Origin: Candidatus Altimarinota bacterium
GTDB lineage: Bacteria; Patescibacteriota; Gracilibacteria; UBA4473
NCBI GenBank assembly: GCA_020631075.1
Contig: JAHDHX010000001.1
Span: 124,001 to 188,000, forward strand
Direction: 5' to 3'
Length of the DNA stretch: 64,000 bases
The notes below the pieces were generated by a model. It was not told the origin of the DNA, ran no database searches, and was given only the letters and a program-made list of their open reading frames with translations. A program made the position numbers and the translations under genes. Positions 5,823 to 17,407 of this stretch are shown here, in pieces (within the stretch, counting starts at the first letter, position 1; each line of letters opens with the position of its first letter).

Positions 5823-5979
5823 ACTGAACTGAGAACAAAAGGGTCGTAGTGGAGGGACTGGTAAGCCGTGGTGGCTTCGCTGCCCACTGTAGGCAGGGAG
5901 AGGTGGGAAACAAATTGATTGGGAGAGGGAAAAAGACGGCAGAGTGTGTGAGCCTGAAAGTTCGCTCGATTGTCTCCAC

Positions 5980-6007
5980 TTGCCCTCTGGCGGGGGGGCC
6001 CTACATT
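5980..6007 (+). promoter_or_regulatory. Promoter of the HMG-CoA synthase operon
   Basis: TTGCCC, 16 bases, TACATT. The -10 ends 7 bases before ATG 6015, predicting a leaderless message. The 190-base gap back to the divergent glycosyltransferase gene shows no other clear signal. Confidence 0.45.
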
Positions 6008-6014
6008 GGCGGTG

Positions 6015-6917
6015 ATGACTGCACCGATCGGCATCGAAGCGATAGCGTATGCGCTGGGGAGCGACACGCGGCGGAGCCGTGCGGTGGGGCGAGCGGTGCC
6101 GTACCCGTATGAAGACAGTTTTACCTTAGGGTTGCGGGCGACCAGGCCGATCACGGTGGGGGATGAGTCGGCGTTGTACTTCGCGTCGGAGACGCCCCTT
6201 TATAGCGCGAACCCGACCGCGACACAGCTGGCGCATTGGTTGGGTCTGGGGCCGCGGACGCACGCGCATGACATTGAATTTGCGTGTAAGGCGGGTACGA
6301 GTGGGCTGATCTCTGCGGTGGGGGGGCTGCGAGCGGGGCAGAGCCAACGGAGCCTGGTGGTGGCGGCAGACACGGCCACAGGGCAGGTGGGTGACGCGCT
6401 GGCGAGCCTGACGGGGGCGGGGGCGGTGGGGGTGCGACTGGGGACGGTGGCGCCGATAGCCACGGTGGAGCACCTGACGACCTATAACGTGCATAGTCAT
6501 GACTTCTGGCGGGGGGCGCTGCAGGCGCATCCAGCCCATGCGGGGCGATTTAGTGCGGCGCAGTACACCAGCACGGTGATGGGCTGTGTGGAGCAATTTT
6601 TCACTGAGACGGGTACCACGGCGGCGGATTTTGACCACGTGGTTTTTCACCAACCGAACCCGAAATTGCCCCAGCGGACGGGGAAATCCTTGGGGTTTAC
6701 ATCACAGCAAATGGCGGCGGGGACGGTGTGGCCGACGACGGGGAACCTGTACACGGCGACGTGCTTGCTGGGCCTGCACCAAGCGCTGGCGCAGGCGGAG
6801 GAGGGGCAAGATATATTGCTGGTGAGCTATGGGTCGGGGGCGGGGTCGGACGCGCTCTGGTGGCGGACGACAGCGGCGCTGGGGGAATGCAATCTTTCTC
6901 GTTTGGTTCCGGCATGA
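6015..6917 (+). CDS. mvaS: Hydroxymethylglutaryl-CoA synthase, archaeal type
   Basis: This thiolase-fold enzyme joins acetoacetyl-CoA and acetyl-CoA to HMG-CoA, the committed step to mevalonate. The nucleophile lies in FACKAGTSG, the acid Glu in ASETPLYSANPTAT and the His in VVFHQPNPK. AADTATGQVGDAL matches archaeal HMG-CoA synthases rather than the eukaryal or firmicute form. It has 300 residues against about 350 in archaea, and the N-terminus is short. ATG 6015 fits the promoter; the track start at 5970 lies upstream of it. The stop overlaps the thiolase ATG by 4 bases. Later mevalonate genes (HMG-CoA reductase, mevalonate kinase) are not in this window. Confidence 0.88.
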   Translation: MTAPIGIEAIAYALGSDTRRSRAVGRAVPYPYEDSFTLGLRATRPITVGDESALYFASETPLYSANPTATQLAHWLGLGPRTHAHDIEFACKAGTSGLISAVGGLRAGQSQRSLVVAADTATGQVGDALASLTGAGAVGVRLGTVAPIATVEHLTTYNVHSHDFWRGALQAHPAHAGRFSAAQYTSTVMGCVEQFFTETGTTAADFDHVVFHQPNPKLPQRTGKSLGFTSQQMAAGTVWPTTGNLYTATCLLGLHQALAQAEEGQDILLVSYGSGAGSDALWWRTTAALGECNLSRLVPA

Positions 6918-8020
6918 ACACTCCTGTATACGTCCACGGTGGGGGGCAGACTGTCTTTGGGGAGCTGTATAGCCATGGCTTGCTGGAGCTGTTTGCGCTG
7001 GCGCTAGATGAGGCGTTGGGGGAGGCTGAACTTAGTCGAGGGGATGTGCAGGCGATATATTGCGCGAATATGCTAGGAGCGGTGCTGGGGGGGTATAATC
7101 ACCTGAGTGTTCAGCTGCGGCATTATTTGGGTGTTGATTGCCCTGTGTTTACGGTTTCGCAGGCGTGCGCTTCGGGGGGGGTGGCGGTGCATCTGGCGCG
7201 GCAGGGGGTGCAGAGTGGGGCTTATGACACGGTGGTGGTGCTGGGCGGGGAAAAGATGACGGATCAGGAGCCGTCGGTGGTGACGCAGGCGCTGATGGGG
7301 GCGACCAGTGTGGAGGAGCAGCTGGGAGGGCTGAGCTTGCCCCAGCTGTATGGGTTGATGGCGCAGGAGTACCTCGACGTGTATGGCTTGCCTGCGACGG
7401 TGCTGGACTATGGGCCGTTGCTGGGGCATCGTCAGAGTGTAGGGAATCCGCTGGCGCAGTTTCAGCAAGTGGTGCGGCCAGAGACCGTGCGTGAAAGTGC
7501 GGTGGTGAGTAGTCCTTTGCGACTCTTTCACTGTTCGCCGATCACCGACGGGGCGAGTGCGCTGGTGCTGCGGCGGGCAGAAAGTGCGGTGCGAGTGGTG
7601 GATTCGGTGCTGGGGTACGCCCCACCTGCGCTGGCGGATAGGCAAAACCGCTTGCGGTTGGGCGCGGTGGAGCAGGCGGCGGAGCAGCTGACCGTGCGAC
7701 CGTCGGAGTGCACAGTGCTGGAGTTGCATGATTGCTTTTCGATCGCGCAGATATTAGCGGTGGAGGCGCTGGGGCTGGCGGCAGCTGGAGCGGGGCACGA
7801 AGTGCTGCGCGAGGCGTATGAACGACCTGACGACCAGCGGGTGATCAACCGTGATGGGGGGCTGAAAGCCAATGGGCACCCCGTGGGGGCGACGGGGGTG
7901 CGGCAGCTGGTGACGGCGTACCGAGCACTGCGCAGTGGCCCGAGAGGCCAGAATGCGCTGACGCAAAACCTAGGGGGGACGGGGGGATCTTGTGTTATTC
8001 ACACCCTGAACCGATGCTAG
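6914..8020 (+). CDS. Archaeal-type thiolase (acetoacetyl-CoA thiolase)
   Basis: A 368-residue thiolase-fold protein. The nucleophilic Cys is in SQACASGGVA, the His in LELHDCFSIAQ, and the C-terminal catalytic GLKANGHPVGATG is complete. HDCF and the SCP-x-like ending place it with archaeal thiolases that form a complex with HMG-CoA synthase and DUF35, passing acetoacetyl-CoA directly to the synthase. Its ATG overlaps the mvaS stop (ATGA) and its stop overlaps the next ATG by 7 bases, so the three proteins are translationally coupled. The expected role is acetoacetyl-CoA formation from acetyl-CoA. Confidence 0.87.
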   Translation: MNTPVYVHGGGQTVFGELYSHGLLELFALALDEALGEAELSRGDVQAIYCANMLGAVLGGYNHLSVQLRHYLGVDCPVFTVSQACASGGVAVHLARQGVQSGAYDTVVVLGGEKMTDQEPSVVTQALMGATSVEEQLGGLSLPQLYGLMAQEYLDVYGLPATVLDYGPLLGHRQSVGNPLAQFQQVVRPETVRESAVVSSPLRLFHCSPITDGASALVLRRAESAVRVVDSVLGYAPPALADRQNRLRLGAVEQAAEQLTVRPSECTVLELHDCFSIAQILAVEALGLAAAGAGHEVLREAYERPDDQRVINRDGGLKANGHPVGATGVRQLVTAYRALRSGPRGQNALTQNLGGTGGSCVIHTLNRC

Positions 8021-8358: not shown

Positions 8359-9336
8359 TTAGAAGTCGAGAGAGGCTTTGAGGGCTTCGGCGGCGGCGGC
8401 ATCGTCTTCGTCTTCGTTGGCTTCTTCTTTCTTGGTTTCGCTGGTTTGAAGCTCTCGTTCGCGCTCGGCCTTGAGCTTGTTGACGTCGTCGGCGAAGCGA
8501 TCTTCGAGTTCTGCGAATTTTTGTTGCTCTTCGGTGAAGATGCGGATGAGTTCGTTAATCTGCTCGATACTCAGGCGTGGGATGGCGTCGATGACGCGTT
8601 TTTTCTCTTCGAGGGTGAGAGAGATGGAGCCTTCGAGGAGGGTGAGGAAATTTTCTTCGTCGAAGGTGGTGTTTGGGTGAGGGGGAAGGGTGAAGATGTG
8701 CCCTTTCCGAGTGGTAAGCTGCCCTTTACGGAAGCCTTCTTTGGCTTCGTATTTCTTTAGGGCGGCTTTTTGCTCGTCGGTGATGGGGCCGGTCATCCCT
8801 GGAGGAACGGGTGGCTGGCCGTCACCTGTATTCCCACCTGTGGCAGCGGCGCCACCCGTGGGTGGTGTGCCAGCGGGCGGAAACCCGCCAGTGGGGCCAC
8901 CTGATATACCCGGGGTGGCAGGAACTGGTTGCTGGAAACCTGCAGGGGCGGTGCCTGGGGTGGGCGGTGTGCCTGCGTTTGGCGGGGCGTACCCTTGTGG
9001 GGGGTAGTAGCCCTGTGGCGGATAGTAGCCTTGCGGGGGGTACCCTGCGGGGGGTTGCTGGCCGTTGGGGGCGGGCTGTCCGTTGGGTGGGGGGAATCCT
9101 TGTGGGGGGTAGTAGCCTTGGGGGGGATAATACCCTTGAGGGGGGTAGTAGCCCTGTGGAGGGTAGCCCACTGGTGGGTGCTGCCCGTGGGGGGCGCCTT
9201 GGCCTGTGGGGGGTTGAGTTTGGCCTGCGCCCTGCCCAGCAGGAGGGGTCTGCCCGCCTGTGCCAACCGGTGGTGTGGGGGGCGTGGGGGTGCCGCCAGC
9301 GGGTTGTGGGGGAGTGGGTTGTGTGTTGTCAGCCAT
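8359..9336 (-). CDS. Pro/Gln/Tyr-rich repeat protein with acidic helical C-terminus
   Basis: A 325-residue protein of unknown function. Residues 1-205 are low-complexity P/G/Q/T, with YYPPQG repeats at about 57-118. Residues 205-325 look folded and helical (ITDEQKAALKKYEAKEGF...), ending in a charged coiled-coil-like segment and an acidic tail. There is no signal peptide or membrane helix, so it is probably cytoplasmic. YPPQG repeats occur in annexin-like, synexin and opsin tails and often drive self-association; that is analogy only. ATG 9336 gives MADNTQ; the track frame extends 27 codons further without support. Confidence 0.75.
   Translation of the reverse strand: MADNTQPTPPQPAGGTPTPPTPPVGTGGQTPPAGQGAGQTQPPTGQGAPHGQHPPVGYPPQGYYPPQGYYPPQGYYPPQGFPPPNGQPAPNGQQPPAGYPPQGYYPPQGYYPPQGYAPPNAGTPPTPGTAPAGFQQPVPATPGISGGPTGGFPPAGTPPTGGAAATGGNTGDGQPPVPPGMTGPITDEQKAALKKYEAKEGFRKGQLTTRKGHIFTLPPHPNTTFDEENFLTLLEGSISLTLEEKKRVIDAIPRLSIEQINELIRIFTEEQQKFAELEDRFADDVNKLKAERERELQTSETKKEEANEDEDDAAAAEALKASLDF
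8983..9168 (-). repeat. Tandem repeat coding YYPPQG
   Basis: Two blocks of near-identical units of 18 bases (Tyr-Tyr-Pro-Pro-Gln-Gly) are separated by a P/N/G/Q linker. Unit number could vary between strains by slippage. Confidence 0.8.
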
Positions 9337-9464
9337 GGAAGGGTTTGGTTTATGTGAATGGGTGGCACTGGTGAGTGCTTTCTTGTATATTCTACGCGTT
9401 TTTGGGGGAACTGCCAAGAGTCTCTGCGGCTGCTGTGTCTGTGTTTTATTCTCTCTGTGGTTGT

Positions 9465-10583: not shown

Positions 10584-10712
10584 ATGAAGGTCCTATGGGG
10601 GCCGTGGTGCAAGCCCTGTGATGGGTGGATCACAAAGCGGAGTGGTTTAGCAGGTTGTGTGGTAGAGTGTTTGGTTGTGAAGCTGCAGAGAGGCTGTAGA
10701 GAGGTGGCTTAG
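10584..10712 (+). CDS. Possible 42-residue protein with a thioredoxin-like WCKPC motif
   Basis: A short frame begins MKVLWGPWCKPCD. WxPWCxPC is the redox centre of thioredoxins, but the rest (GWITKRSGLAG...) lacks the remaining fold, including the cis-proline strand. AGGAG lies 3 bases before the ATG. It may be a decayed thioredoxin start, a genuine micro-redox protein, or chance. It ends 17 bases before the end of the converging Cys-rich gene. Confidence 0.25.
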   Translation: MKVLWGPWCKPCDGWITKRSGLAGCVVECLVVKLQRGCREVA

Positions 10713-10729
10713 ACGTTGAAAAGGGGGGG

Positions 10730-12379
10730 CTAGACGACGACTTTAAGGTACTCGGCTTCGCAGAGGACGCGCTCGGGTCTGTCGGGGGCGTAGGTGGTGA
10801 GGATGGGCTGGCCCGAGGCGGCGCAGGTGCGGGCGTAGAGCTGTCGGGGATTACGCAAGGCCATGCGGTCGCGGTGGCGCTGGTCGGGGCAGCGGCGGGG
10901 GATGGGGAGGCTCATTTTACGGTAAAAGCTGAGTTCGGCGCGTTGAATCTTGTAGTTTTTGCCGGTGACTTCGCAGGCGAGGAGTGCTTTGCAAATGCTG
11001 TCGTCGACGTCGGCGATATGGTCAGGGATGGTGACGGTTTGGGGTTGGTATTGTTTCTGGTCGGGGTCGCGCCAGCGGTAGCCGCGGGCGAGGGCCTGCT
11101 CTTTGGTCAGGGGGTAGTACTCTTGGGCGACGGTTTCGTTGTAGGCGAAGGGGCTGAGGGCGGCGGGGAAGAACTGGCCCCACTCGCCTGTAGATTTCAT
11201 ATGCTCGATGATCTTGGGTTTGAGGTCGTGGTATTCGGCTTCGGAGTATTGGCGGTTGAGGATGCAGTGGGATTTATTACGCAGGGAAATGCAGCCAAAA
11301 CAGTGCTGTGAGCTAACGATGAGCTCGCTGTAGAGGATGTCGGTGCAGTTGGTCCAGACGTTGGAAACGAATTGGCAGTTGTAGACGTCTTGGCCAGAAG
11401 AAATCATTTCGTAGCAGAGCTCGGAATGGTAGCCGCCAGCCATGCAGTCATGGCAGTCGGTGGAGTCCTTATAGACTGTGCTGTAGCTCAGATCTTGGCC
11501 TTTGTGAATATCAAAACAGTGTTGGCAATTTTTGGAGTTGGTGATGTAGTTGCCGGTGCAGGACTCAGACTGGAGAATTTCGGCGAAGCGGTGTGGGTGA
11601 CCTGCGAGATAGCGTAAAAAGCTGGTGTGGAGCTGTTGCAGGTGTTGGGCGGAGCTGGTTTGTAGCCTGTGGAGGCGACGTTGGTATTCGGTGGGGGAGA
11701 GTGGCTCGTTGAGCCAGTAGTATTGCTTGTTTCTGAGATTGACGGAGCCAAAGCAGTGTTGGCAGCCGATGCAGTTTTTCAGAAAAAATGAGTCACTGCA
11801 CTGTTGGCAGTTTTGCAGGTAGGCGACGTTGTAACAATTTTTGCAGTTGATCAGTTGGTAGCCAAGTTCGCATTGCTCCACAAAGAGGGAGTCGAGAATG
11901 TCGGTGGATTTGAGGCAGTTGGTGGCGTAGAGGCAGTCACGTGACCAGTCGCAATTATAACTGAGGTAGCAGTGTTTGGAGTAGCCGCATTGGTTGACGT
12001 AATGGCACTGGTCGTTGGCGATGATGTGCTGAGACATCCTTGGGGTGACGTGCTGGAGGGCTGCGAATTGGTCAAAAAAGGGGCGAGTGAAATCGTAATC
12101 TCGGCCATAAACAATGGGGTCCCAGTTGTCTGACCACCAGTGGTCGAGGCTGTAGACGGGGAAGGGAGTGGTGGCTGGGTGGTACATACTCAAAACTCGT
12201 TGCTGGGTGGCGGCGCAATGAGCCCAGTAGAGGGTGCGTTCGTTGCGGCGGGTCATGCGGAGGCGTTCGCGCTCTGGGGGGCAAAGTGTCGGCATCGGCA
12301 CCTGTAATTTTTCGTAAAATGCGCGGTCGGCGGCGGTGATCTCAAACGCTTGGCCAGAGACGGTGCAGGTGCGTTTCAT
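10730..12379 (-). CDS. Large Cys-rich protein with duplicated zinc-finger-like modules at both ends
   Basis: A 549-residue protein of unknown function. Residues 5-70 (CTVSGQAFEI..., PTLCPPERERLRM, LYWAHCAATQQRVLS) recur at 469-535 (CEVTGKNYKI..., PRRCPDQRHRDRM, LYARTCAASGQPILT). Each copy has paired Cys motifs suggesting a treble-clef-like metal site. Between them lie about 30 cysteines in recurring NCxxC, CxxCFG and LRNK elements with periodic spacing, suggestive of a beta-helix or metal ladder. There is no signal peptide or membrane helix. I recall related Cys-rich proteins being common in CPR genomes, sometimes mislabelled CaiB/BaiF. TACTCT ends 7 bases before the ATG. Confidence 0.75.
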   Translation of the reverse strand: MKRTCTVSGQAFEITAADRAFYEKLQVPMPTLCPPERERLRMTRRNERTLYWAHCAATQQRVLSMYHPATTPFPVYSLDHWWSDNWDPIVYGRDYDFTRPFFDQFAALQHVTPRMSQHIIANDQCHYVNQCGYSKHCYLSYNCDWSRDCLYATNCLKSTDILDSLFVEQCELGYQLINCKNCYNVAYLQNCQQCSDSFFLKNCIGCQHCFGSVNLRNKQYYWLNEPLSPTEYQRRLHRLQTSSAQHLQQLHTSFLRYLAGHPHRFAEILQSESCTGNYITNSKNCQHCFDIHKGQDLSYSTVYKDSTDCHDCMAGGYHSELCYEMISSGQDVYNCQFVSNVWTNCTDILYSELIVSSQHCFGCISLRNKSHCILNRQYSEAEYHDLKPKIIEHMKSTGEWGQFFPAALSPFAYNETVAQEYYPLTKEQALARGYRWRDPDQKQYQPQTVTIPDHIADVDDSICKALLACEVTGKNYKIQRAELSFYRKMSLPIPRRCPDQRHRDRMALRNPRQLYARTCAASGQPILTTYAPDRPERVLCEAEYLKVVV

Positions 12380-12439
12380 CAGTGGTAGAGTAATGAAACT
12401 GGGTGCTGGGGGCGAGCGATAATTTTGGGGGGCTCTGTT

Positions 12440-12468
12440 TTGGCGTCTTTGGGGGTTATGGATATAGT
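12440..12468 (+). promoter_or_regulatory. Promoter of guaA
   Basis: TTGGCG, 17 bases, TATAGT. The -10 ends 6 bases before ATG 12475, predicting a leaderless transcript. Confidence 0.6.
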
Positions 12469-12474
12469 CTGGGC

Positions 12475-14271
12475 ATGAAAACGCTTGAGCACTTGATTAT
12501 TGTTGATTTTGGGGGGCAGTATGCGCATTTGATTGCCAGTCGTGTCCGTCGGTTGGGGTTTTATACCGAAATCGTCGCGCCTGAAGAGTGCACGCTGGCG
12601 GTAGTGCAGCAGGCTGCGGTGCGGGGGGTGATCCTTTCCGGGGGGCCGCAGAGTGTGTTTGACGCGGCTTCGCCGTCGGTGGATGTGGCGGTGCTGCGCT
12701 GTGGGAAGCCGATCTTGGGGATTTGTTATGGGCATCAGTTTTTGGCCAGCCGGCTGGGGGGGGAAGTGCGGCCCGCGGCCGAAACGGACAGTCGGGAGTA
12801 TGGCCCAGCGGCGCTGTGTCAGCGGGGTGAGTCGCCCCTGTGGCAGGGGGTGGAAGATAAGTCAACCATGTGGATGAGCCACGGCGACGCGGTGACCAAG
12901 CTGCCTGAGGGGTTTGTCGTCATTGCGGAGTCGGCGGACTGCCCTGTGACTGCCATGGCGGATGAAGCGCGGAAGTTGTATGGGATACAGTTTCACCCTG
13001 AGGTGACCCACTCGACCCATGGGCAAGCGGTGCTGCGGAACTTCGTAGAGATGTGTGAGATCACGCCAAATTGGGGGACGGAGCAATTCTTGGCCCAGCA
13101 GCGGGAGGTGATAGCGGAGCAGATCGGTGACCGACGGGTGCTGCTGTTTGTGTCGGGGGGGGTGGATAGCTCGGTGTGTTTGGCGTTGCTGACCCAAACG
13201 CTGGGGGGTGACCGTGTGAAGGGGGTTTTTGTCGACACGGGGTTGCTGCGGGCGGGAGAACGAGAGCAAGTGGAGGCTTCACTGCGGGGGGTGGGAGCGG
13301 ACCTGACCGTGATAGACGCGGGGGAGATGTTTTTGTCGGCGTTGGGGGGGCAAACGGACCCCGAAGAAAAGCGCAAAACGATTGGGCGGTTGTTTCTGGA
13401 GGTGCAGCGGGAGTACTTCGCGGACAAGCCGCTGGGGGATGGCTGGGTGCTGGGGCAGGGGACGATATACCCCGACACCATCGAAACGGGGGGGACAAAG
13501 CACGCGGATACCATTAAGACGCACCACAACCGCGTGACGGAGGTGCAGGCGCTGATAGACCAAGGGCTGGTGATAGAGCCGATTGCGCCTTTGTATAAAG
13601 ATGAGGTGCGACAGCTGGGTGAGGCGCTGGGGCTGCCGAAGGCTATGGTGTGGCGCCATCCTTTCCCTGGGCCTGGGCTGGGGGTGCGGATCCTTTGTAG
13701 TGGGGAGGCGAAAACTGAGACACTGGTGTGGGAAAATGGTGGGGCGGTGCTGCCCCTGAAGTCGGTCGGGGTGCAGGGGGATTTCCGTACCTATAGCCAC
13801 CCGTTGCTGCTGGAGACTGCAAACGAAAACATAGCGGAGCTGGAAGCCGAGGCGGTGGGGCGGATCAATAAAAATGGGGCGATAAATCGGGTCACGGTGT
13901 GGCTGGCGGGACGAACTGCTGACACGCCTACGGTGGCGGAACTCCGCCGAGTGGACATAAACCCTGGGCGGGTGGCGACGCTGCAGGCGGCTGACGGGAT
14001 CGTGACGCGGCAATTGCTGGAGCGGGGGATATATAATGATGTGTGGCAATTCCCAGTGGTGCTGGCGCCTGTGTCTTTTGCTGGTGGGGGGACGGAAACG
14101 GTGATCTTGCGGCCGGTGGACTCTATCGATGCGATGAGTGCAGGGGTGGGGCGGCTGGACTATGCGGTGCTGCGGGCGATGGCGGATGAGATCATTATGC
14201 AGGTGCCGCAGGTATCGGCGGTGTTGCTGGACGTGACCCCGAAGCCGCCTGGAACTATTGAGTGGGAGTAG
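12475..14271 (+). CDS. guaA: GMP synthase (glutamine-hydrolysing)
   Basis: This enzyme aminates XMP to GMP. The N-terminal class I glutamine amidotransferase domain (about 1-195) has the nucleophile in GICYGHQ and the His of the triad in FHPEV. The ATP-pyrophosphatase domain follows with the PP-loop SGGVDSS (about residue 225), and the C-terminal dimerisation domain ends with the usual VTPKPPGTIEWE. The length is 598 residues against 525 in E. coli; the extra lies mainly in insertions of the ATP-PPase and dimerisation parts. ATG 12475 is chosen by homology and promoter; the track frame adds 24 codons through the promoter. Confidence 0.95.
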   Translation: MKTLEHLIIVDFGGQYAHLIASRVRRLGFYTEIVAPEECTLAVVQQAAVRGVILSGGPQSVFDAASPSVDVAVLRCGKPILGICYGHQFLASRLGGEVRPAAETDSREYGPAALCQRGESPLWQGVEDKSTMWMSHGDAVTKLPEGFVVIAESADCPVTAMADEARKLYGIQFHPEVTHSTHGQAVLRNFVEMCEITPNWGTEQFLAQQREVIAEQIGDRRVLLFVSGGVDSSVCLALLTQTLGGDRVKGVFVDTGLLRAGEREQVEASLRGVGADLTVIDAGEMFLSALGGQTDPEEKRKTIGRLFLEVQREYFADKPLGDGWVLGQGTIYPDTIETGGTKHADTIKTHHNRVTEVQALIDQGLVIEPIAPLYKDEVRQLGEALGLPKAMVWRHPFPGPGLGVRILCSGEAKTETLVWENGGAVLPLKSVGVQGDFRTYSHPLLLETANENIAELEAEAVGRINKNGAINRVTVWLAGRTADTPTVAELRRVDINPGRVATLQAADGIVTRQLLERGIYNDVWQFPVVLAPVSFAGGGTETVILRPVDSIDAMSAGVGRLDYAVLRAMADEIIMQVPQVSAVLLDVTPKPPGTIEWE

Positions 14272-15814: not shown

Positions 15815-17407
15815 ATGCGTACAGCTGTTTCTACTGCCTTGGCAGTTGCTTTCCTTGGCTTAACGTCTGGTGACGTTGCCGCCCACCACCAGTCATATGG
15901 TGTTGGTGCTGAGTATTATCCTTACGATTTGATCATTACTAATGGTCAAGCGGTGGGATACTACGATTTCAATGGCATGGCTCGATACTTTGATGGTCGG
16001 TCGGTGACTGGGAGTACGCAGCTGAATGCGGGGTCTGAGTCAGTCCGAATAGGGGCGACGGTCAATTATGGTACGGTTTCGCCAGAAGCTGTGCAGCTGC
16101 AGGGAGGGGCGGCGACTGCCAATGTGACCATGCGTGGTAACTTTAACTATGTGAATGGTGGTGAAGCGCAAATGAACTTCAGTGGTGGGAACGTGGTGGT
16201 AAATGAGACGATGTCTCAGTTTACTGTGCCGACCCTGTATGGTGAAGATCAAGTGATCGATGTTGTCTTGGACGATATTGTCGGCGAACAGTTGGTGCTC
16301 GATATTCCTTCTCGGACTATTGATCTGCAACAGCAAGTTGTGAACGTGGATATTCCTGATCAGTTCATTGAAGGGTTGAATCTAAACCTTAAGGTTGATG
16401 ATGTTTTTGAGCCACAAAAAACTATCACGGTGACGACGCCTGATGTGGTCCTGCCCACGCAAGAGTACGTCTTGCAGATGCCAAACATTGAGCTGGAAAA
16501 GGAATTTTACACCATTGACATCCCTGGAGTGACAGCCCCCCAACAAGTCGTTGAAATTAATGGTCCTGACTTTGTGATGCCGAACACTTTGGTGCGAGTG
16601 CGAGAACCAAACGTGAGAATGCCGGCACCAATTGTGCGGATGGGGGACATTAATGTGAATAATCCTGATGCGCTGGTGAATGTTAAAGTACCGAACATTA
16701 CTGTCGGCGATCACCGCATTAATGTTCAGGGACCTGATGTTCACTTTACTGACCCGAACATTGAACTAAACCAAGGGAAAATATTTAGACCAGATGCGAA
16801 CATAGTCCTGTTGCCTGGGACTGTCACGGCTCCGAGCCCCAGCATTACGGTGAATCAGGGAGACTTTGTTGTGCCTGATACGATTGTGCAATTTAACGAA
16901 GGGCGGGTGATCCAAAACAGTGCTACGGTTGATACAACGCCGGGGAGCTTTAGCCAAGAGGCGATTTCGTTTGCGGAAGGGGCTGTCAATGTCAGAGAAG
17001 GGCAAGGACAGGTCAACATGGGGGAAATCGTGGTCACGGGAGGACAGGAGTCAGTGACGGTGGGCCAAGCGAATGTGCTGCTGACTGAAGGACAATTAGT
17101 CCAAGGTCAGGGGGTGCAGCTGGTTTCTGTGCCAGCGGGTTCGATCAGCAACACTTCGCAAGTGATTGTGATAGATGACGTGCAATTGCTGGGTGGTGGG
17201 CAGCAAAACATTGTCGTGAATGAAACGCGAAACGTAGTCACAAACCAAGCAGCGGAGGTAAACGTAGGGGGTGAATCGTTTGTGATCATTGAAGGTGGAG
17301 TCGATGGAATGGGCTCGATCGTCAATCAAGGTGGTGTCCACACTCACGCAGATGGTGTGACCCACAATCACGCTTACAACATCACGGATGCGTACATGGC
17401 GAACTAA
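15815..17407 (+). CDS. Secreted beta-repeat protein with His-rich C-terminus
   Basis: A 530-residue protein with a signal peptide (about 1-23, cleavage near DVAA-HH). The mature part has no cysteine and no membrane helix. Residues 130-370 carry short irregular repeats of alternating V/I with conserved P, D and N (VNVKVPNITVGDHRINVQGPD), typical of an extended beta structure or fibre. The last 30 residues include HTHADGVTHNHAYN, a likely metal-binding patch. Base composition is more AT-rich than the neighbours. No family is recognised. A surface fibre, adhesin or S-layer-like role is plausible but unproven. A strong terminator follows. Confidence 0.78.
   Translation: MRTAVSTALAVAFLGLTSGDVAAHHQSYGVGAEYYPYDLIITNGQAVGYYDFNGMARYFDGRSVTGSTQLNAGSESVRIGATVNYGTVSPEAVQLQGGAATANVTMRGNFNYVNGGEAQMNFSGGNVVVNETMSQFTVPTLYGEDQVIDVVLDDIVGEQLVLDIPSRTIDLQQQVVNVDIPDQFIEGLNLNLKVDDVFEPQKTITVTTPDVVLPTQEYVLQMPNIELEKEFYTIDIPGVTAPQQVVEINGPDFVMPNTLVRVREPNVRMPAPIVRMGDINVNNPDALVNVKVPNITVGDHRINVQGPDVHFTDPNIELNQGKIFRPDANIVLLPGTVTAPSPSITVNQGDFVVPDTIVQFNEGRVIQNSATVDTTPGSFSQEAISFAEGAVNVREGQGQVNMGEIVVTGGQESVTVGQANVLLTEGQLVQGQGVQLVSVPAGSISNTSQVIVIDDVQLLGGGQQNIVVNETRNVVTNQAAEVNVGGESFVIIEGGVDGMGSIVNQGGVHTHADGVTHNHAYNITDAYMAN

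What the first reader, a model, noticed from the sequence alone, without database searches (positions are those of the whole stretch)
10730..12379. Cys-rich protein with the same metal-site module at both ends
Residues 5-70 and 469-535 share the pattern CxVxGxxFxI, FYxKM/LxxPxPxxCPxxR, RN, LYxRxCAxSGQxIL. About 30 further cysteines in recurring NCxxC and CFGxxxLRNK units lie between. A bookended, metal-rich repeat protein without a signal peptide suggests a large metal store, RNA-binding scaffold or redox device in an otherwise lean genome.
Basis: partly seen in the sequence, partly recalled or inferred. Interest (0 to 1): 0.7.

Follow-up and report, generated by a model that had tools for sequence, protein, structure and literature searches.

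The report
Many-copy solenoid partner of secretion ATPase
This gene belongs to an unnamed protein family, present in up to about 45 copies in tiny Patescibacteria genomes, whose two ends and cap stay alike within each genome while its middle varies, and which travels with (its solenoid is in one genome fused to) a type IV secretion-type motor, suggesting a set of specialised cargo or adaptor proteins for contact with other cells.

Summary
In detail: a 549-residue ORF has homologous modules at both ends (profile-profile 99.9%, E 4e-31). The metal-store reading does not. The ends are zf_Tbcl-type treble clefs; in relatives, diagonal cysteine pairs are kept or lost together, as expected of zinc sites, but this copy has only half-sites. 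Of its 33 cysteines, 25 lie in two homologous solenoids with 12-residue coils, on every third residue, as small core residues.

The larger find is the family. It is absent from Pfam and NCBIfam and reaches 48 matches in one 0.9 Mb genome, often in tandem arrays. Trees of the ends and cap follow the genome, while trees of the solenoids do not. The window copy shares a nearly identical 3' cassette with a paralogue whose 5' two-thirds is about 50% identical.

The family co-occurs with one clade of VirD4-type coupling ATPase (28/2/1/29 of 60 genomes), usually within 5 kb on the same strand. Stand-alone single-solenoid relatives all sit beside, or in one case are fused to, such an ATPase.

Best reading: a repertoire of coupling-ATPase partners with constant docking parts and target-specific solenoids, probably exported cargo. 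Export itself is inferred, not shown.

The parts
10730..12379 (-). 549-aa family member (two end modules, two solenoids)
   Evidence: AF2 model mean pLDDT 84.7, pTM 0.85
12170..12379 (-). N-terminal treble-clef-type module, residues 1-70; degenerate site C5/S8/C33/E36
   Evidence: hhalign with C module; cysteine table; zf_Tbcl/zf_Tbcl_2 hits in relatives
12020..12169 (-). conserved linker, residues 71-120 (WWSDxWDxxxYGRDFDFxRPFFxQF)
   Evidence: alignment A1
11705..12019 (-). solenoid A with first CFG cap, residues 121-225, 12-residue coils, 14 Cys
   Evidence: DSSP strands every 12 residues; Cys autocorrelation lag 3 = 0.36, lag 12 = 0.46
11570..11704 (-). helical spacer, residues 226-270
11225..11569 (-). 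solenoid B with second CFG cap, residues 271-385, 11 Cys; homologous to A
   Evidence: hhalign E 3.7e-37
11000..11224 (-). conserved helical linker, residues 386-460 (EHMKxTGEWGEFFPxxxSPFAYNET)
   Evidence: alignment A1; follows genome in trees together with the cap
10733..10999 (-). C-terminal treble-clef-type module, residues 461-549; degenerate sites C469/T472/C497/Q500 and C519/S522/C540/E543
   Evidence: CxxC-x17-CxxC (TIGR04272) hits in 17 of 34 relatives
10648..11266 (-). 3' cassette nearly identical at DNA level (95-100% per 30 codons from residue 391) to paralogue G000:C35, running about 82 bases past the stop; upstream identity about 50%

Best explanation
The gene encodes one of a repertoire of partner proteins for a dedicated VirD4/TraG-type coupling ATPase. 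The end modules and the cap are constant parts that dock on machinery shared by all copies in a cell; gene conversion keeps them matched within each genome. The two 12-residue-coil solenoids are the copy-specific part and decide what each protein binds. Most likely the proteins are cargo handed to the type IV secretion channel and delivered to the cell on which these ultrasmall bacteria live. Shown: architecture, concerted ends with genome-independent centres, genomic linkage, one natural ATPase-solenoid fusion. Inferred: physical docking, target recognition by the solenoid, export. In this copy the end modules have probably stopped binding zinc.
For: A coupling-ATPase clade (PF02534, PF10412, PF12696 matches) is present with the family and absent without it in 60 relatives: 28 both, 2 family only, 1 ATPase only, 29 neither; Fisher p 2e-13. 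In 22 genomes it lies within 5 kb of a family gene, 19 on the same strand. Stand-alone solenoid proteins occur in 5 of 380 phylum genomes and in all 5 sit directly beside their own ATPase clade, in G336 fused in one 629-aa ORF. In G025 the ATPase, end module and double solenoid are neighbouring separate genes. Genome-label changes on trees: N module 27, cap/linker 27, C module 22, against about 54 shuffled; solenoids 57 and 56. Solenoids match best in other genomes (median 0.49 vs 0.41 within), so centres are old specific types. No signal peptide or TM in any of 98 members by hydropathy. The closest central relatives of the window copy are G018 and G014 proteins; the G014 gene lies 52 bp from the ATPase.
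Against: The natural fusion and the single-copy stand-alone forms fit a permanent ATPase subunit or adaptor better than exported cargo. The coupling ATPase clade has no TM segment, unlike classical VirD4, and also matches HerA (DUF87) weakly. In the genome of the window the ATPase lies about 1 kb from a 61-aa family fragment, not beside an intact copy. The own genome has a VirB4-like ATPase only below the curated cut-off. Co-occurrence and adjacency are not independent if the genes are inherited as one block. A published survey notes that the VirD4 homologue of Ca. S. epibionticum is not essential and may be exapted (PMC12102498).
Confidence: 0.45

Rival explanations
1. The proteins stay inside the cell as interchangeable adaptors of the coupling ATPase, each solenoid recruiting a different substrate, in the manner of adaptor subunits on the C-terminal side of other coupling proteins.
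For: Solenoid fused to the C-terminal side of the ATPase in G336; stand-alone single-copy forms in ATPase operons.
Against: Up to about 45 copies against one ATPase of the clade per genome is many for adaptors; end modules are absent from the stand-alone forms.
Confidence: 0.3
2. The ATPase is a cytosolic HerA-like nucleic-acid motor rather than a secretion part, and the family forms its specificity subunits in a nucleic-acid or conflict system.
For: ATPase without TM segment; DUF87/HerA and weak mad8 matches; basic end modules.
Against: VirD4/TraG/TrwB-type models score comparably or better than HerA models in most members; no PADLOC match for the family or the stand-alone solenoid; no nuclease recurs in the neighbourhood.
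Confidence: 0.17
3. Metal store or redox protein.
For: 33 cysteines; all-or-none cysteine pairs in the end modules of relatives.
Against: All potential Cys4 sites of this copy are half-lost; central cysteines follow the solenoid core grid and are exchanged for S, A, G, V; no redox or metal gene recurs beside the family.
Confidence: 0.03
4. A selfish or mobile gene block that spreads by tandem duplication, the coupling ATPase being part of a decayed conjugative element.
For: Tandem arrays, gene fragments, patchy distribution.
Against: Central types are conserved between genomes, most copies stay full length and open, divergent TrmB-type regulators recur; no recurring transposase or relaxase cluster in the neighbourhood.
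Confidence: 0.05

Closest known systems
zf_Tbcl (PF13451), zf_Tbcl_2 (PF23477) and TIGR04272 (CxxC-x17-CxxC)
   Same: Relatives match these treble-clef zinc domains (6 of 34, best E 5e-8; 20 of 34, best 2.8e-6; 17 of 34, best 3.7e-5)
   Different: No match in the window copy; its metal ligands are half-lost; the known models cover short domains, not a two-module protein with solenoids
phrog_15341 (phage family of unknown function)
   Same: Matches 30 of 34 members, window residues 124-218 (solenoid A) at E 6.8e-6
   Different: 276-position model with unknown function; whether its members have end modules was not checked
Insect antifreeze (Tenebrio-type) 12-residue Cys-rich beta-helix
   Same: 12-residue coil with small residues including Cys facing inward every third position; the comparison structure is recalled, not tested
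   Different: No Pfam antifreeze match and no PDB fold match; no signal peptide; here two solenoids with caps
T4SS effector families with shared secretion domains and variable functional parts (e.g. BID-domain or XVIPCD effectors, from general knowledge)
   Same: Many copies, constant part plus variable part, linked to a coupling protein
   Different: No sequence relation known; export not shown; constant parts at both ends and evolving in concert
VirD4/TraG-type coupling proteins of Patescibacteria (PMC12102498)
   Same: The partner ATPase falls among VirD4-like proteins
   Different: The clade linked here lacks TM segments and travels with the solenoid family; the passages of that survey read here do not mention it

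Membership tests
zf_Tbcl / treble-clef zinc domain (end modules) | profile match of the window copy | tested here: not met
   no zf_Tbcl match reported with the limit at E 10; relatives do match
zf_Tbcl / treble-clef zinc domain (end modules) | four Cys ligands, CxxC plus CPxC | tested here: not met
   window C5/S8/C33/E36 and C469/T472/C497/Q500; 55 and 28 of 98 relatives have all four
zf_Tbcl / treble-clef zinc domain (end modules) | ligand pairs gained or lost together in the family | tested here: met
   8/36: 56 both, 39 neither, 3 discordant; 472/500: 28/70/0 with at least 8 changes on the tree of that region
zf_Tbcl / treble-clef zinc domain (end modules) | tetrahedral metal geometry | not testable with these tools
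   the AF2 model was built without metal and its coordinates could not be measured
T4SS coupling-ATPase cargo or effector | genomic linkage to a coupling ATPase | tested here: met
T4SS coupling-ATPase cargo or effector | no Sec signal or TM segment | tested here: met
   98 members (hydropathy only)
T4SS coupling-ATPase cargo or effector | export through the channel | not testable with these tools
   needs experiment
VirD4/TraG coupling protein (the neighbour ATPase) | T4SS-DNA_transf / TrwB_AAD_bind match above cut-off | tested here: met
VirD4/TraG coupling protein (the neighbour ATPase) | N-terminal TM anchor | tested here: not met
   no 19-residue window above 1.6 in the clade members checked
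Metal-storage protein (metallothionein-like) | cysteines conserved as ligand clusters | tested here: not met
   central cysteine columns swap with S/A/G/V on the core grid

The most novel reading that the evidence does not exclude
Ultrasmall epibiotic bacteria keep a large, regulated repertoire of solenoid recognition proteins whose constant ends and cap evolve in concert to fit one secretion-type motor while each solenoid is retained across species as a distinct specificity: a delivery system of a new protein class that would explain what type IV machinery does in Patescibacteria without relaxases.
Probability: 0.35. Interest if true: 0.9.

Novelty: new variant of a known kind. Interest (0 to 1): 0.72.

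Why it matters
What the type IV machinery of Patescibacteria moves or handles is open; a 2025 survey (PMC12102498) found it widespread, mostly without relaxase, with many VirD4 homologues far from virB4. A many-copy family tied by co-occurrence, adjacency and one fusion to a specific VirD4-type clade gives named candidates that can be tested. It is also a clear bacterial case of concerted ends around old, species-crossing centres in genomes of about 1 Mb. No description of the family was found in the literature searched.

Tried and rejected
Pfam, NCBIfam, PADLOC and PDB sequence searches of the window copy gave nothing reliable: DUF547 at E 0.086, mS111 at 0.8. Foldseek of the whole model found no PDB fold; in the viral library the best match was a zinc-ribbon phage protein (E 0.03), presumably to the end module. 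Phage and plasmid tblastn gave only chance-level matches, one called insect antifreeze protein. Plain purifying selection on the ends as the sole cause of their likeness was rejected, because trees of the ends sort by genome while trees of the centres do not and a sharp DNA breakpoint exists. Random hypervariability of the centre was rejected, because centres match best in other genomes. A structure job on the natural fusion was not sent, because that locus came from a tool not named in the structure tool's stated list; the accepted alignment A1 did contain rows from genome-search loci. Literature searches for the family found no description.

Full report
Observation. The ORF at 10730-12379 on the minus strand is real and open for 549 codons. 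It sits next to a gene on the other strand that reads as guaA by eye (12403-14271). The two ends are homologous: residues 4-75 and 468-538 align by profile at probability 99.9, E 3.9e-31, while column-shuffled controls fail.

Architecture. The AF2 model from 34 aligned relatives has mean pLDDT 84.7 and pTM 0.85, with the solenoids at about 70-80. Its strands in the first half of the centre repeat every 12 residues. In the family, cysteines of solenoid A repeat at lags 3, 9 and 12 (0.36, 0.30, 0.46), and the same columns hold S, A, G or V in other members. That is the pattern of inward-facing small residues in a narrow solenoid. Solenoid B shows the same only weakly. Relatives match zf_Tbcl, zf_Tbcl_2 and CxxC-x17-CxxC models. 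The second-position cysteines of the end modules appear or vanish in pairs: 8 with 36 (56 both, 39 neither, 3 discordant), 472 with 500 (28, 70, 0), 522 with 543 (90, 7, 1), with several independent changes on trees. So the modules are likely metal sites in many relatives. In the window copy every pair has lost a member, so four-cysteine zinc binding is unlikely there. No metal geometry could be measured.

Family. The own genome (1.46 Mb, 50 contigs) has five full copies and one fragment. Of 60 relatives 37 have matches, with counts up to 48 in the 0.9 Mb genome G026, some of them fragments. In many genomes copies follow each other head to tail, as in G013, G044, G027, G031 and others. In 380 genomes of the phylum, 52 have a match at E 1e-10; about 30 of these look full length by my reading of the table, mainly in the same class. 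Named relatives include Candidatus Gracilibacteria MAGs. Some members come from genomes that read TGA as a sense codon (G058).

Concerted ends, independent centres. The window gene and its paralogue on contig 35 are about 50% identical in DNA over the first two-thirds. From about residue 372 they become 95-100% identical, through the stop codon and about 82 bases beyond. The same shape recurs in other genomes, less sharply. On trees of 78 copies from 12 genomes, the genome label changes 27, 27 and 22 times for the N module, cap-linker and C module, against about 54 for shuffled labels, but 57 and 56 times for the two solenoids. The best match of a solenoid lies more often in another genome (median identity 0.49 against 0.41 within; maximum 0.78), while ends match slightly better within. 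The centres are therefore old types kept across species, and the ends are homogenised within each genome. This is what one expects if all copies in a cell share one partner through their constant parts while each centre has its own target. That last step is inference.

Partner. Two neighbours recur. The first is an ATPase of about 750 residues with VirD4/TraG-type matches and no TM segment. Its full-length clade co-occurs with the family in 60 relatives (28 both, 2 family only, 1 ATPase only, 29 neither, p 2e-13) and lies within 5 kb in 22 genomes, 19 on the same strand. The one ATPase-only genome, G005, holds a 27-residue family remnant at a contig edge. The two results are not independent if the genes are inherited as a block. 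The second neighbour is a TrmB-type regulator (PF01978), within 500 bp in 16 of 43 genomes examined, 12 times divergent upstream. Outside the class, a 230-residue single-solenoid protein occurs in 5 of 380 genomes (G122, G240, G336, G352, G394) at high score. In four it directly follows a related ATPase gene (gap from -13 to about 20 bp) and in G336 the two are one 629-residue ORF. In G025, ATPase, end module and double solenoid are separate neighbouring genes.

Interpretation. I commit to a repertoire of coupling-ATPase partners with constant docking parts and specific solenoids, probably exported cargo (0.45). The strongest rival is a non-exported adaptor set (0.3), which the fusion favours. 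A HerA-like nucleic-acid machine remains possible (0.17). Metal storage is unlikely (0.03). Linkage to the ATPase is the well-supported part; export is the weak step.

Novelty. No Pfam or NCBIfam family and no paper found covers the full protein. The parts belong to known kinds (treble-clef modules, narrow beta-solenoids, coupling ATPases); the combination, copy number and mode of evolution are new to me.

Noticed in passing
L056:6133-6954 (own genome) and 15 other genomes: TrmB-type HTH regulators lie within 500 bp of family genes, mostly divergent upstream, suggesting regulated expression of the arrays.
   Followed up: partly
L081:2199-4085: Natural fusion of a VirD4-like ATPase with a solenoid-cap domain in one ORF (G336).
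   Followed up: yes
L063:3488-7360: Split form in G025: ATPase, 105-aa end module and 342-aa double solenoid as neighbouring genes.
   Followed up: partly
L079:3737-4030 and others listed: Proteins of about 100 aa made of a single end module occur in Patescibacteria that lack the full family.
   Followed up: no
window 8359-9417: ORF on the minus strand with repeated YYPPQG units, Pro/Gly/Gln-rich.
   Followed up: no
window 5970-8020: Adjacent ORFs that look like HMG-CoA/ketoacyl synthase and thiolase, unusual for a small genome; identified by eye only.
   Followed up: no
window 15815-17407: 530-aa ORF with a signal-like start and a centre of degenerate beta-rich repeats, by eye.
   Followed up: no
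L059:4776-4958: 61-aa remnant of a C module about 1 kb from the coupling ATPase in the own genome, possibly marking a lost array copy.
   Followed up: partly
L041: IMG/VR contig end encoding a partial relative (43% identity); with phrog_15341 it hints that solenoid genes also occur on viral or mis-binned contigs.
   Followed up: no
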